From positions 1 to 48,060 of the forward strand of contig JAJTHM010000014.1 in assembly GCA_021297855.1 (NCBI GenBank): a stretch of DNA of 48,060 bases, written 5' to 3'. Below the pieces are notes generated by a model. That model had not been told where the DNA came from, did not search any database, and saw only the letters and a program-made list of their open reading frames with translations. Position numbers and translations under genes: made by a program. This document shows, in pieces, positions 42,159 to 47,151 of this stretch (positions are counted from its first letter, which is position 1; each line of letters opens with the position of its first letter). This DNA is from Sphingobacteriales bacterium. Its GTDB lineage: Bacteria; Bacteroidota; Bacteroidia; Chitinophagales; JADJOU01.

Positions 42159-44084
42159 ATGAGCCAGAAAATAGAGAGACTAGAAAAGCTGAATAAGGCT
42201 TTAGATATAGAATTTCAGCATGATAAAACTATCTATGAAGAGACTTTAAAAAAACTATCTGTCAAAGAGTTAGTTGAAAAAGGACTCACATGGTATCCAC
42301 TCAAAATCAATGAAACAGGATTTACCGTAGGTGAATATCCCTACCTCACGTTAGAGATAGCCGAAGATAAACTCGTATCCCACCAGTTTAAGAGTGGTTC
42401 TATGATACGTTTTTTTCAGAATGTAGATGGCAATATCCATACCCACTCCGTGCGTGGGAGTGTTTACTATGTTTCGAGCAATCAGATTAAAATTATATTA
42501 GAAGAAGACGATTTCCCTGATTGGTACCAAGATGGAAAAATAGGTATCGCTTCCGATTTTGATGAAAAATCTTTTAAAGAAATGCGCATCGCACTGGCTG
42601 AAGTCGAGAAAGCGGGAGACTCCACGACATTAGCACATTTGAGAGATAAATTTTATGGGCTTAGAACCACTTCTCCTATTCAATCTATAAAATTTACCCC
42701 GCGCAACACTTCCCTCAACGCCAGCCAAATCCATGCCATAGAACATATTCTCGGCATGGAAGATTTCCTCATCATTCACGGACCTCCAGGAACTGGCAAG
42801 ACGACGACACTCATAGAAGCTATCTATCAACTCAGTAAAAAAGAAAGTCAAATTCTTGTCTGTTCACCCAGCAATAGCGCAACAGATTTATTGGTGGAGA
42901 AATTATCTTCCATAGGTCTGAAAACACTGCGTATAGGCAACATTTCTCGTGTCAATGAAGCGGTATTATCTCAAACGCTCGATGCTAAAATCGATGCCGC
43001 TCCTGAAATTTTAGAAATAAAAAAGCTGCGAAGAAAAGCAGATGAATTTCGAAAAATGGCGAATAAATACAAACGTCAATTCGGGCCAGAGGAAAGAGAG
43101 CAGCGCAAACTGCTCTTACAAGAAGTGAAGGAAATCCATAAACATATCCGATGGATAGAAGATTATCTCGTCAAAAAAATCTTAGAAGAATCTCAAGTCA
43201 TCTGCACCACCTTAGTCGGTAGTCAGCAGAACTATCTCAAGGATATGAAATTTCAGACCGTGGTCATCGATGAAGGTTCACAAGCCTTAGAGCCTGCCAC
43301 TTGGATTCCAATTCTAAAAGCAGAAAAAGTCATTCTCGCTGGAGATCCTTTTCAGCTGCCTCCCACGATCAAGAGCCATGAAGCTGAGAAACAAGGGCTA
43401 TCCACAACCCTTATGGACATAGGATTTCAGGTGAAGAATAGAGTCTTTCTTCTCGATACGCAGTACCGTATGAAAGAAGAAATCATGGGATTTAGCAATC
43501 TCGTATTTTATGAAAATAAACTACAAGCTGCCCCTAATACGAAAGAACATTATTTTCAAATTCGCGATACCCTATACCCTACCCTGCAGTTTATCGATAC
43601 GGCAGGCTGTGGTTTCGATGAAAAAAAGCAAGACAACTCAGACAGTCTTTCCAATCCTGAAGAATGCAAATTATTATTTGACTATCTAGGCAAGCTTCTC
43701 CTCGAACTAAAATACCAATACGACCACTTGAGCATAGGCGTCATAGCGCCCTACCGAGGTCAGGTGGAGTATATGAAAAACTACGACAGAGAATTTTCAC
43801 AACTCAAACTGAACTACAATATCGATATTTCCACGATAGATTCTTTCCAAGGTCAGGAGCGCGATATCATCTGCATCAGCCTTGTGCGCTCGAATGACGA
43901 AGGGAGTATAGGCTTCCTCAAAGACTACCGGCGTATCAATGTAGCCCTCACCCGCGCGAAAAAAATGCTCATCGTCTTCGGTGATAGCGCTACCCTCTCC
44001 CAAGACGATTTCTACAACCAATGGCTCGACTACTGCCATTCCCACAATGCTTATAAGAGTGCGTGGGAGTTTATGGGGGAGTGA
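42159..44084 (+). CDS. Dna2/NAM7- or IGHMBP2-like superfamily 1 helicase
   Basis: A 641-aa SF1B-type helicase. A coiled-coil and OB-like region (about 1-180) is followed by Walker A GPPGTGKTTTLIEA (208-221), VCSPSNSATD, VVIDEGSQALEP (Walker B, about 370), LAGDPFQLPP, LDTQYRMKEEIMGF, TIDSFQGQERDIICISLVRS and INVALTRAKKMLIVFGD. It would unwind DNA or RNA 5'-3'. The final 120 bases (43965-44084) recur at 44970-45089 on the other side of the zeta-type gene. The C-terminus IVFGD..EFMGE is complete in this copy. Confidence 0.92.
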   Translation: MSQKIERLEKLNKALDIEFQHDKTIYEETLKKLSVKELVEKGLTWYPLKINETGFTVGEYPYLTLEIAEDKLVSHQFKSGSMIRFFQNVDGNIHTHSVRGSVYYVSSNQIKIILEEDDFPDWYQDGKIGIASDFDEKSFKEMRIALAEVEKAGDSTTLAHLRDKFYGLRTTSPIQSIKFTPRNTSLNASQIHAIEHILGMEDFLIIHGPPGTGKTTTLIEAIYQLSKKESQILVCSPSNSATDLLVEKLSSIGLKTLRIGNISRVNEAVLSQTLDAKIDAAPEILEIKKLRRKADEFRKMANKYKRQFGPEEREQRKLLLQEVKEIHKHIRWIEDYLVKKILEESQVICTTLVGSQQNYLKDMKFQTVVIDEGSQALEPATWIPILKAEKVILAGDPFQLPPTIKSHEAEKQGLSTTLMDIGFQVKNRVFLLDTQYRMKEEIMGFSNLVFYENKLQAAPNTKEHYFQIRDTLYPTLQFIDTAGCGFDEKKQDNSDSLSNPEECKLLFDYLGKLLLELKYQYDHLSIGVIAPYRGQVEYMKNYDREFSQLKLNYNIDISTIDSFQGQERDIICISLVRSNDEGSIGFLKDYRRINVALTRAKKMLIVFGDSATLSQDDFYNQWLDYCHSHNAYKSAWEFMGE

Positions 44085-44154: not shown

Positions 44155-44751
44155 ATGAAAGAAAAAATTCTGTATATAGTAGCTGGATGCAATGGTGCAG
44201 GGAAAACAACTGCTTCTTATACTATTTTGCCTGAAATAATTAACTGCAAAGAATTCGTTAATGCAGACGAAATAGCCAAAGGACTTTCTCCTTTTCAGCC
44301 AGAAAAAGTTTCATTTGAAGCTGGAAGAATAATGCTAAACAGACTAAATGACCTAATTATAAATGAAGAAACATTTGCATTTGAAACGACACTCTCAACA
44401 CTCTCATACAAACCGAAAATAGAAGAAGCTAAGGAAAAGGGATATATAGTAAATCTACTATTTTTCTGGTTAGAAAGTAAAGACCTGGCAAAAGAAAGAG
44501 TAAAAACAAGAGTAGCTGAAGGCGGTCACAACATTGATGAAACAACCATTGAAAGAAGGTATGATCGTGGTATTCAAAATTTATTTGACATTTACCTCCC
44601 AATCGTTGATGGTGCTTTAATATTCGACAATTCGCTTTCAAAACCAATCCTAGTAGCCAATAAAAAAATAGGTCAAGAAACTATTATTATAAATAAAGAA
44701 AAATTTAATAAAATAATCCAACAATATGAATGCAGCAGAAAGACAAAATGA
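44155..44751 (+). CDS. Zeta-toxin-family kinase
   Basis: A 198-aa P-loop kinase from the ATG at 44155: VAGCNGAGKTTASYTILPE (Walker A, residues 9-27), VNADEIAKGLSPFQPEKVSFEAGR, AFETTLST, LLFFWLESKDLAKERVKTRVAEGGHNI (LID-like) and RYDRGIQNLF. Zeta toxins phosphorylate UDP-N-acetylglucosamine and poison wall synthesis; chromosomal homologues may have other targets. It is followed by a 49-aa gene overlapping by 26 bases. It lies between the helicase gene and a second copy of the helicase 3' end. Confidence 0.85.
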   Translation: MKEKILYIVAGCNGAGKTTASYTILPEIINCKEFVNADEIAKGLSPFQPEKVSFEAGRIMLNRLNDLIINEETFAFETTLSTLSYKPKIEEAKEKGYIVNLLFFWLESKDLAKERVKTRVAEGGHNIDETTIERRYDRGIQNLFDIYLPIVDGALIFDNSLSKPILVANKKIGQETIIINKEKFNKIIQQYECSRKTK

Positions 44752-44875
44752 AATATTTAATAAAATAATCAAGGGCATGGACAAAGTCTATGAAAAACTT
44801 ATCGAATATAAGAAACTAAAGAACAGCGAACTTGTAGTGATGCAAGATGGGAAAATTCTAAGAATTAAACCATAG
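44726..44875 (+). CDS. 49-aa partner of the zeta-type kinase, candidate antitoxin
   Basis: Forty-nine codons from ATG 44726 to TAG 44873, overlapping the kinase 3' end by 26 bases in another frame. The peptide MNAAERQNEIFNKIIKGM is a charged helix, continued by DKVYEKLIEYKKLKNSELVV and a short tail DGKILRIKP. The helix and lysine-rich stretch could bind the kinase. From memory, small proteins of this style accompany zeta-family genes in Bacteroidetes. No function is proved. Confidence 0.6.
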   Translation: MNAAERQNEIFNKIIKGMDKVYEKLIEYKKLKNSELVVMQDGKILRIKP

Positions 44876-44969
44876 GTGCTTATTTTATTTACTACCTTTA
44901 AGATGTTATGCATCAGCGCCTAAACCTAAATCTTTAACAATAAGTTAGTCAATAAGAACAAGAGGATAA
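44876..44969. other. Short gap between the 49-aa gene and the helicase fragment
   Basis: Ninety-four bases without a gene. AT-rich, with no hairpin followed by a T-run. The junction with the helicase fragment is sharp, at the ATG codon of the fragment (44970). Confidence 0.4.
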
Positions 44970-45089
44970 ATGCTAATCGTCTTCGGTGATAGCGCTACCC
45001 TTTCTCAAGATGATTTCTACAACCAATGGCTCGACTACTGCCATTCCCACAATGCATATAAAAGTGCTTGGGAGTTTATGGGGATATAA
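44970..45089 (+). pseudogene. Second copy of the helicase 3' end (120 bp)
   Basis: This 120-bp stretch aligns without gaps to helicase bases 43965-44084. Eight codons differ. Seven differences are synonymous (Leu, Leu, Ser, Asp, Ala, Lys, Ala), and the final Glu-stop is replaced by Ile-stop. The encoded 39-aa tail is MLIVFGDSATLSQDDFYNQW and on to EFMGI. It lacks the rest of the helicase, so it is a fragment. The pattern points to an allele under protein-level selection until it was separated, not to a slow local duplication. Confidence 0.85.
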
Positions 45090-45170: not shown

Positions 45171-46244
45171 ATGGAACAAAAACCTGCATTATTCGGAATA
45201 AAACATTCTAATAGAGATATTTCTAAACCAGATAGTTGGGGTAAGAATAAATTCAATGCCACGTTTCCGGCTTCTTTGATTGCCTATATGGATAGTGTTG
45301 GCAAAAATCCTGTCTATCTAAAGATGGGATCAGATAATTCATTAGAACACAACTATATTTCTGGAAAAGAACTTTTTAAATTAAATCCTTTGGATGATTC
45401 ACTTTATTACTCCTTTGAATCTTCATATACCCCTTTTCAAACATTAACTTTGAATAACCCGCCTAACGTAGATTTAATGTTAATAAATCACAAGTCTTCT
45501 GAAATCCTAGCAGGATATGAAGTCAAACTAACTACTTTACCTGATGAAAGTACACATAATCTTTCAGAAGATAAGTATGGAAGTGAGATAGTTATTCGAA
45601 TGCCTTCTATACATTTTTTAGCGTGTAGTTTAGCGTCTATTTATAAAGATAATCGAAAAGATTTAAAGAAATATTTTGGTCAGAATGGATTTGGAAATAT
45701 TTCAAGCTATACTGAAGCAGCACAAGTAAATCCAAAAATAGGGGATATTTGGATGATTATGAACAATATAATTACTGACAATTTAGATAAGCAGAAACCT
45801 ACAATAATCCAACCAATTTGGAAAACACTGGGAAAAAAACCACTTTTAGCTGAAAACTGCTTAGATGTTTTTGTCTGGTCAGACTTAGCTTTTACTAAAC
45901 TTTTCATGACTGAATCAGCCAGAGTCCCCCTTGATGCAACAGTTCCAGTGAATAGACCAACAAGAGCGTTAATTCAATTATTCTTCATGCTTAATGAATT
46001 TTATATCCGTGGCAACTTTGACTCAAAAGATATTTTTCAAAAATTGACTTATACAGTTAAAAACGACAAGGCTTTTTCTGTGTCTGGAAGGAAAACAAAT
46101 ATTTTGATGAAATGTGAAGAACTTTTAAAACCCAGAATAACTAAACAAGAGATAAAAAACATAATTTTGGGAGGTGGTCATTTGCTGCTTTCTCCTGAAA
46201 GAAGGTTTGACGCTGTGGTTGCTAATTCCTTAGATTTGTTTTAA
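45171..46244 (+). CDS. HindVP-like type II restriction endonuclease
   Basis: A 357-aa protein. ALFGIKHSNRDISKPDSWGK and FNATFPASLIAYM at the start match, from memory, the HindVP restriction endonuclease family. The PD-(D/E)xK-type core is NVDLMLINHKSSEILAGYEVKL with Asp101, Glu117 and Lys119. HindVP reads GRCGYC; this enzyme's site cannot be known from the sequence. The methyltransferase follows after 7 bases, as in a type II pair. The endonuclease gene is first, so some control of expression must protect the host during entry. Confidence 0.75.
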   Translation: MEQKPALFGIKHSNRDISKPDSWGKNKFNATFPASLIAYMDSVGKNPVYLKMGSDNSLEHNYISGKELFKLNPLDDSLYYSFESSYTPFQTLTLNNPPNVDLMLINHKSSEILAGYEVKLTTLPDESTHNLSEDKYGSEIVIRMPSIHFLACSLASIYKDNRKDLKKYFGQNGFGNISSYTEAAQVNPKIGDIWMIMNNIITDNLDKQKPTIIQPIWKTLGKKPLLAENCLDVFVWSDLAFTKLFMTESARVPLDATVPVNRPTRALIQLFFMLNEFYIRGNFDSKDIFQKLTYTVKNDKAFSVSGRKTNILMKCEELLKPRITKQEIKNIILGGGHLLLSPERRFDAVVANSLDLF

Positions 46245-46251
46245 TAGCGTA

Positions 46252-47151
46252 ATGAGAACAGTTGATTTATTTGCAGGATGTGGCGGACTTTCATTAGGTT
46301 TAAAGAATGCAGGATTTAATGTTGTGGCTGCCTATGAAAATTGGAACGCCGCCGCAAATATTTATCAAAAAAATTTTAATCATCCTGTTTTTGAGATTGA
46401 TTTATCAGATATTGAAAAGGCTATTACTCATATTAATCAGTTTAACCCAGAGATTATTGTAGGCGGCCCGCCTTGTCAAGACTTTTCAAGCGCAGGAAAA
46501 AGAAACGAGAATGGAACTCGTGGAAATTTAACACTTTCCTATGCAAGAATTGTTTCTGGTATAATGCCAAAATGGTTCCTTATGGAAAATGTAGAGAGAA
46601 TTAACAAAACTGTAATTTTTGCAGAGGCGAAAAGAATTTTACAAGAAGCTGGATATAGTTTTACAGAAACAGTTCTTGATTCTAGTAAATGTGGAGTTCC
46701 TCAAAAAAGAAAAAGAATGTTTCTGATTGGCCATATTGAAGCTCCTGATAATTTTTTAGTCGATAAACTCTTGTTAGGGCTATCTAAAAATAGTATGACT
46801 ATCCGTGAGTATATGGGAAAACATCTTGAGATAGAACACTACTACAGACACGCTAGGAGTTATGCTAGACGAGGGATTTTCAGTATTGATGAGCCAAGTC
46901 CTACTATTAGAGGAGTTAATAGACCCATTCCTCCTAATTATTCACCACATCCTGGAGATGCCACATCAAATATAAAAAATGTAAGACCACTTACTTCTAT
47001 AGAAAGGTCATATTTACAGACCTTTCCTAGAAATTTTAATTGGAACGGATTAAACAAAACTACATTAGAGCAAATTATTGGTAATGCTGTCCCTGTAAAT
47101 CTAGCAAAGTATGTTGGAAATTGTATTATGGAATACGAAAAAAGCAAATAG
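46252..47151 (+). CDS. DNA (cytosine-5) methyltransferase of the RM pair
   Basis: A 299-aa C5 methyltransferase with motif I DLFAGCGGLSLGL, motif IV GGPPCQDFSSAGKR (catalytic Cys75), motif VI MENVERI, motif VIII QKRKRMFLIG, a target-recognition region and motifs IX and X (PTIRGVNRP, GNAVPVNLAKYV). It methylates cytosine in the site cut by the partner endonuclease. At 299 aa it is at the short end for the family, which suggests a small target-recognition domain. Confidence 0.93.
   Translation: MRTVDLFAGCGGLSLGLKNAGFNVVAAYENWNAAANIYQKNFNHPVFEIDLSDIEKAITHINQFNPEIIVGGPPCQDFSSAGKRNENGTRGNLTLSYARIVSGIMPKWFLMENVERINKTVIFAEAKRILQEAGYSFTETVLDSSKCGVPQKRKRMFLIGHIEAPDNFLVDKLLLGLSKNSMTIREYMGKHLEIEHYYRHARSYARRGIFSIDEPSPTIRGVNRPIPPNYSPHPGDATSNIKNVRPLTSIERSYLQTFPRNFNWNGLNKTTLEQIIGNAVPVNLAKYVGNCIMEYEKSK

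What the first reader, a model, noticed from the sequence alone, without database searches (positions are those of the whole stretch)
44155..44875. Zeta-type kinase with a small downstream partner
A 49-aa gene overlaps the kinase by 26 bases. The order kinase then small protein differs from classic epsilon-zeta, where the antitoxin comes first and is larger. The charged helical peptide could be a new antitoxin type or a regulator.
Basis: inference. Interest (0 to 1): 0.6.

Follow-up and report, generated by a model that had tools for sequence, protein, structure and literature searches.

The report
Zeta-type kinase with downstream antitoxin-like protein
A probable bacterial toxin, a zeta-type kinase, is followed by an overlapping gene for a tiny helix-plus-hairpin protein that accompanies it across several bacterial phyla and probably neutralises it, which would make this an overlooked toxin-antitoxin family with reversed gene order.

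Summary
In detail: a 198-aa Zeta_toxin (PF06414) kinase (44155-44751) overlaps a 49-aa gene (44726-44875) by 26 nt. The small gene is real. It is under purifying selection (dN/dS below 1 in all 119 comparisons). It lies beside the kinase in 79 of 80 related loci from named genomes, overlapping it in 75, and nothing else near the kinase recurs. It is fused to the kinase's C-terminus in one clear and two weaker cases. Intact small genes also occur beside broken kinases or alone (8 of 30 loci), while intact kinases almost never lack it. That asymmetry fits an antitoxin better than an enzyme subunit. AlphaFold predicts a 29-residue helix plus a beta-hairpin (pLDDT 94); no Pfam, NCBIfam or PDB relative was found. 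Best reading: a type II-like toxin-antitoxin module whose antitoxin is an undescribed, basic, downstream-encoded family. Reversed order itself is not new for zeta-like toxins (AvrRxo1:Arc1). Toxicity, direct binding and the substrate (UDP-GlcNAc or other) are not shown. The module is absent from four congeneric genomes and sits between 116-nt copies of a helicase gene's 3' end, next to a type II restriction-modification system.

The parts
44155..44751 (+). zeta-type P-loop kinase, putative toxin (198 aa)
   Evidence: PF06414 E 2.7e-8; fold of a 38%-identical natural fusion matches AvrRxo1, zeta and PezT
44185..44211 (+). Walker A region GxNGAGKTT (residues 12-20 in window:44152 numbering)
   Evidence: G12, N14, G15, A16, G17, K18, T20 invariant in 30 relatives
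44260..44268 (+). NAD triplet (37-39); D39 is the likely equivalent of the zeta catalytic Asp67
   Evidence: N37 invariant, A38 and D39 at least 90%; role of Asp67 in zeta from PMC3062530; the equivalence is inferred, not aligned residue by residue
44383..44385 (+). E78 of the FxxETTL motif
   Evidence: invariant in 30 relatives
44521..44529 (+). GGH signature (124-126) of this kinase subfamily
   Evidence: invariant in 30 relatives
44726..44875 (+). 49-aa putative antitoxin, helix 3-31 plus beta-hairpin 36-47, pI 9.6
   Evidence: conserved in 79/80 loci; AF2 pLDDT 94; dN/dS
44726..44751 (+). 26-nt gene overlap (start of the small gene inside the end of the kinase gene)
   Evidence: 75 of 79 partner genes in relatives also start before the kinase stop
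43963..44078 (+). 3' end of the IGHMBP2-type helicase gene, first copy of a 116-nt direct repeat flanking the module (context)
44968..45083 (+). second copy of the repeat, 94% identical (context)

Best explanation
A two-gene toxin-antitoxin module in toxin-first order. The kinase would phosphorylate an essential small molecule (UDP-GlcNAc is the first guess, by analogy with zeta and PezT) and stop growth. The overlapping 49-aa gene would be translated by coupling to the kinase gene, and its product would bind the kinase and block its active site. Shown: the conserved gene pair, purifying selection on the small gene, the kinase fold and motifs, natural fusions, and survival of the small gene when the kinase is broken or absent. 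Inferred: toxicity, direct binding, inhibition, substrate, translational coupling. The kinase-antitoxin reading is what I hold most likely; the substrate is close to open (UDP-GlcNAc about 45%).
For: Partner gene beside the kinase in 79/80 loci of named genomes. Neighbour clustering: the small family in 107 of 124 loci, next best family 8. dN/dS median 0.17, 119/119 below 1. C-terminal fusion in L052 (profile i-E 2e-8) and, by eye and weak profile hits only, L142 and L143. Reverse search with the small-gene profile in 395 genomes: of 30 loci read, 22 with an intact kinase, 5 with a damaged one, 3 with none. Damaged kinases with an intact small gene also in L008, L014, L016, L017, L018, L024, L028; L035 has Walker A Lys changed to Gln. 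Closest folds include toxins with inhibitory partners: AvrRxo1 complex E 2.4e-9, epsilon/zeta and PezAT E about 1e-6. Arc1 likewise stays intact beside broken avrRxo1 (PMC4938570).
Against: No toxicity or binding data. Some solitary zeta homologues are not lethal when overexpressed (Acinetobacter baumannii homologue, cited in PMC4803016). L103 has an intact kinase and no partner, and L054 has only an overlapping 47-aa ORF that the profile does not recognise. The kinase gene is about four times longer than the small gene, so it is broken more often by chance alone. Many loci are draft or metagenome assemblies, where stops and frameshifts can be errors. The partner is basic (pI 9.6, family median 9.6), whereas antitoxins are usually acidic.
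Confidence: 0.72

Rival explanations
1. The small protein is a subunit of the kinase (a split-off C-terminal domain needed for folding, substrate binding or activity), and the pair is an ordinary two-subunit enzyme, not a toxin-antitoxin pair.
For: Near-obligate pairing, overlapping genes, and C-terminal fusions.
Against: Intact small genes persist beside broken kinases and alone: 8 of 30 loci. A subunit has no reason to outlive its enzyme. The whole module is patchy: absent from four congeners.
Confidence: 0.15
2. The pair is an anti-phage defence or stress module in which the small protein senses the trigger and releases the kinase.
For: Adjacent type II restriction-modification system here; patchy distribution.
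Against: No match of the window kinase to PADLOC models and only marginal hits in 4 of 30 relatives. It differs from the best explanation in biological role more than in mechanism, and was not tested further.
Confidence: 0.1
3. The small protein is a substrate or regulator unrelated to toxicity, for instance a protein phosphorylated by the kinase.
For: Basic, lysine-rich helix.
Against: The closest folds are small-molecule and polynucleotide kinases.
Confidence: 0.03

Closest known systems
epsilon-zeta (pSM19035) and PezAT
   Same: PF06414 kinase fold and motifs; small partner gene next to the kinase
   Different: Antitoxin first and larger there (a three-helix bundle, in PezA with an added HTH domain; PMC4803016, and general knowledge); here the partner is downstream, 49 aa, helix plus hairpin, basic; no match to the epsilon family
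AvrRxo1:Arc1
   Same: Zeta-like kinase; toxin gene first, small antitoxin gene downstream; antitoxin gene stays intact when the toxin gene is broken (PMC4938570); best Foldseek match
   Different: AvrRxo1 is 421 aa; Arc1 is 98 aa and all-helical with an ExxYY motif that occurs in 0 of 128 partners here
EzeT (E. coli)
   Same: Zeta kinase with the antitoxin function in the same chain, like the fusions found here
   Different: The EzeT antitoxin domain is N-terminal (PMC4826407, PMC4803016); here it is C-terminal
Rv0367c-Rv0366c (M. tuberculosis, ParD-like plus zeta)
   Same: Short zeta kinase (197 aa) with a non-epsilon partner
   Different: Partner is ParD-like, 129 aa, and in antitoxin-then-toxin order in TASmania (PMC6504116)
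MqsRA, HigBA, HicAB, RnlAB
   Same: Toxin-first gene order; MqsA is also basic (PMC4803016)
   Different: Unrelated toxins

Membership tests
Zeta_toxin kinases (PF06414) | Pfam score above the curated cut-off | tested here: met
   33.9 vs 22.3 bits; 30/30 relatives match at E <= 0.01
Zeta_toxin kinases (PF06414) | P-loop and conserved acidic and arginine residues | tested here: met
   Invariant G12, N14-K18, T20, N37, E78, R116, R120, GGH, R135, R136 in 30 relatives
Zeta_toxin kinases (PF06414) | UDP-GlcNAc kinase activity | not testable with these tools
   needs an assay
epsilon-zeta / PezAT toxin-antitoxin systems | Antitoxin of the epsilon or PezA family | tested here: not met
   No epsilon or HTH family listed among the Pfam matches of 69 partner proteins at E <= 0.1 (25 of 32 families shown; the window protein's own list is complete)
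epsilon-zeta / PezAT toxin-antitoxin systems | Antitoxin gene upstream of the toxin gene | tested here: not met
   Partner downstream here and in 79/80 loci; no recurring upstream gene
AvrRxo1:Arc1 | Arc1 double-tyrosine motif | tested here: not met
   0 of 128 partners; motif as printed in PMC4938570
Type II toxin-antitoxin systems in general | Two adjacent co-directional genes, one small, conserved together | tested here: met
Type II toxin-antitoxin systems in general | Toxin inhibits growth and antitoxin neutralises it by binding | not testable with these tools
   needs co-expression and binding tests

The most novel reading that the evidence does not exclude
An undescribed toxin-antitoxin family, widespread in Bacteroidota and reaching Ignavibacteria and Cyanobacteria, in which a helix-plus-hairpin antitoxin, encoded downstream or fused to the C-terminus, inhibits a zeta-type kinase whose substrate is not UDP-GlcNAc (for instance NAD or a nucleic acid).
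Probability: 0.3. Interest if true: 0.65.

Novelty: new variant of a known kind. Interest (0 to 1): 0.5.

Why it matters
Short zeta kinases are annotated in many genomes as 'zeta toxin family protein' beside a 'hypothetical protein', with no named antitoxin. A conserved downstream partner gives a directly testable antitoxin for this set, and the C-terminal fusions would be a mirror image of EzeT. On Synechocystis plasmid pSYSG the same pair lies in a defence island, in a stretch that a dedicated toxin-antitoxin survey set aside as not meeting its criteria (PMC4963859). Whether and how so small a protein inhibits the kinase can be settled with one complex structure.

Tried and rejected
Mixed alignments of kinases and small proteins for folding a natural fusion misplaced the small proteins, so the fusion L142 was folded with kinases only. 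Its small domain has low confidence (helix block means 71-81, last blocks 45-55), no coordinates were available, and the docking of the partner on the kinase was not determined. Coevolution between the two proteins (111 pairs) gave a top-10 score above 30 of 30 shuffled pairings, but relatedness was not controlled and the top pairs scatter: inconclusive. The partner's predicted fold had no PDB match (best E 2.9); this does not prove a new fold. Small ORFs upstream of distant zeta kinases (Paenibacillus, Rhodococcus, Vibrio; Persephonella downstream) have a similar-looking C-terminal hairpin sequence, but profile scores are not significant or marginal (E 0.003 to 0.2 among 21 sequences). No terminator or better-than-chance promoter near the module; the downstream RNA fold is ordinary (z 0.09). 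Literature: nine searches of open-access papers found no description of this pair; most subscription journals are not in that library.

Full report
The genes. The kinase runs from ATG 44155 to the stop ending at 44751 and the small gene from ATG 44726 to 44875, sharing 26 nt. The kinase belongs to Pfam Zeta_toxin (E 2.7e-8); it is single-copy in its genome. The small protein matches no family above a curated threshold in Pfam, NCBIfam or PADLOC, and its PHROGs matches are marginal (best E 0.011).

Conservation of the pair. Related kinases were found in 26 of 100 relatives and 80 of 395 genomes of the phylum at E <= 0.001, the weaker ones belonging to other zeta groups. Of 80 loci from named genomes picked by kinase motifs, 79 carry the small gene directly downstream, 75 with its start before the kinase stop, most often 14 or 11 nt before. 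L103 lacks it. L095 has the small gene split over two frames in a draft assembly, which may be an error. An all-against-all comparison of neighbours found no other widely recurring gene: 107 of 124 loci for the small family against 8 for the next, so the unit is two genes. With the first 10 codons left out, dN/dS of the small gene was below 1 in all 119 comparisons, median 0.17.

Taxonomic reach. Besides Bacteroidota (Flavobacterium, Bacteroides, Parabacteroides and others) and an Ignavibacteria genome, plasmids of Synechocystis (pSYSG), Geminocystis and Nostoc carry the kinase with a downstream partner that the family profile recognises (E 3e-6 to 2e-14). A survey of Synechocystis toxin-antitoxin systems lists genes sll8001 to ssl8005 of pSYSG as related to toxin-antitoxin modules but not meeting its criteria (PMC4963859); that these include the pair is my inference from position.

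Fusions. In L052 the two are one 257-aa chain, and the profile finds the small domain at its C-terminus (i-E 2e-8). L142 and L143, on viral contigs, have C-terminal extensions that look alike but score weakly (E 0.05 and 0.3).

Asymmetry. A reverse search with the small-gene profile returned matches in 34 of 395 genomes. Of 30 loci read, 22 have an intact kinase, 5 a damaged one (L173, L180, L190, L193, L196) and 3 none (L186, L187, L195). In the forward searches further damaged kinases with an intact small gene were seen, against L103 and possibly L054 for the opposite case. Part of this follows from the kinase gene being four times longer, and part may be assembly error, but large deletions and orphan small genes are hard to explain if the small protein were only a subunit.

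Structure. AlphaFold2 of L142 (32-row alignment, 38% identical to the window kinase) gives a confident kinase and an uncertain small domain. Foldseek's best PDB matches are the AvrRxo1 complex (E 2.4e-9), epsilon/zeta and PezAT (about 1e-6). VIA-align puts a polynucleotide kinase at Z 15.2 (rmsd 3.0, 162 aligned), AvrRxo1 at 14.4 (2.9, 189) and zeta at 14.3 (3.1, 178); rows that differ by under 1 are tied, so the fold does not tell the substrate. The window's small protein alone (69-row alignment) is predicted with pLDDT 94 as helix 3-31 plus hairpin 36-47, with no PDB match.

Known relatives. In AvrRxo1:Arc1 the antitoxin gene is also downstream and is kept intact when the toxin gene is broken, but Arc1 is a larger, all-helical protein with a motif absent here (PMC4938570). 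EzeT carries its antitoxin domain at the N-terminus. TASmania pairs zeta with HTH and ParD-like partners.

Local setting. The kinase is absent from four congeneric genomes. In the window the module lies between two copies of the last 116 nt of a helicase gene, 94% identical to each other and 90-91% to the same stretch in a congener (104 and 106 of 116 positions). The next genes are a HindVP-type restriction enzyme, also absent from the congeners, and a C5 methyltransferase. In a congener the helicase is followed by an unrelated convergent gene. Acquisition of the module here is likely; the mechanism was not worked out.

Noticed in passing
window 43963-44078 and 44968-45083: 116-nt direct repeat (94%) of the helicase gene's 3' end flanking the module; both copies are about equally close to a congener's gene, as if two related helicase ends had been joined around the module.
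   Followed up: partly
window 45171-47151: HindVP-type restriction endonuclease (PF09519) and C5 cytosine methyltransferase directly after the second repeat; the endonuclease is absent from four congeners.
   Followed up: partly
window 44695-44718 and 44747-44770: 24-nt imperfect repeat (22/24) read in frame in both genes (KEKFNKII at the kinase C-terminus, NEIFNKII in the small protein); may be chance in AT-rich DNA.
   Followed up: no
L147:1811-2008, L159:818-1201, L161:653-1192: Distant zeta kinases of Paenibacillus, Rhodococcus and Vibrio plasmids have an upstream overlapping or abutting gene whose product's C-terminus looks like the hairpin here (pattern NG..I.E.PDG), not significant by profile.
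   Followed up: partly
L020, L023, L030 (kinase matches): Longer zeta homologues (about 250-260 aa) of another group occur in the same order, without this downstream partner by profile.
   Followed up: no
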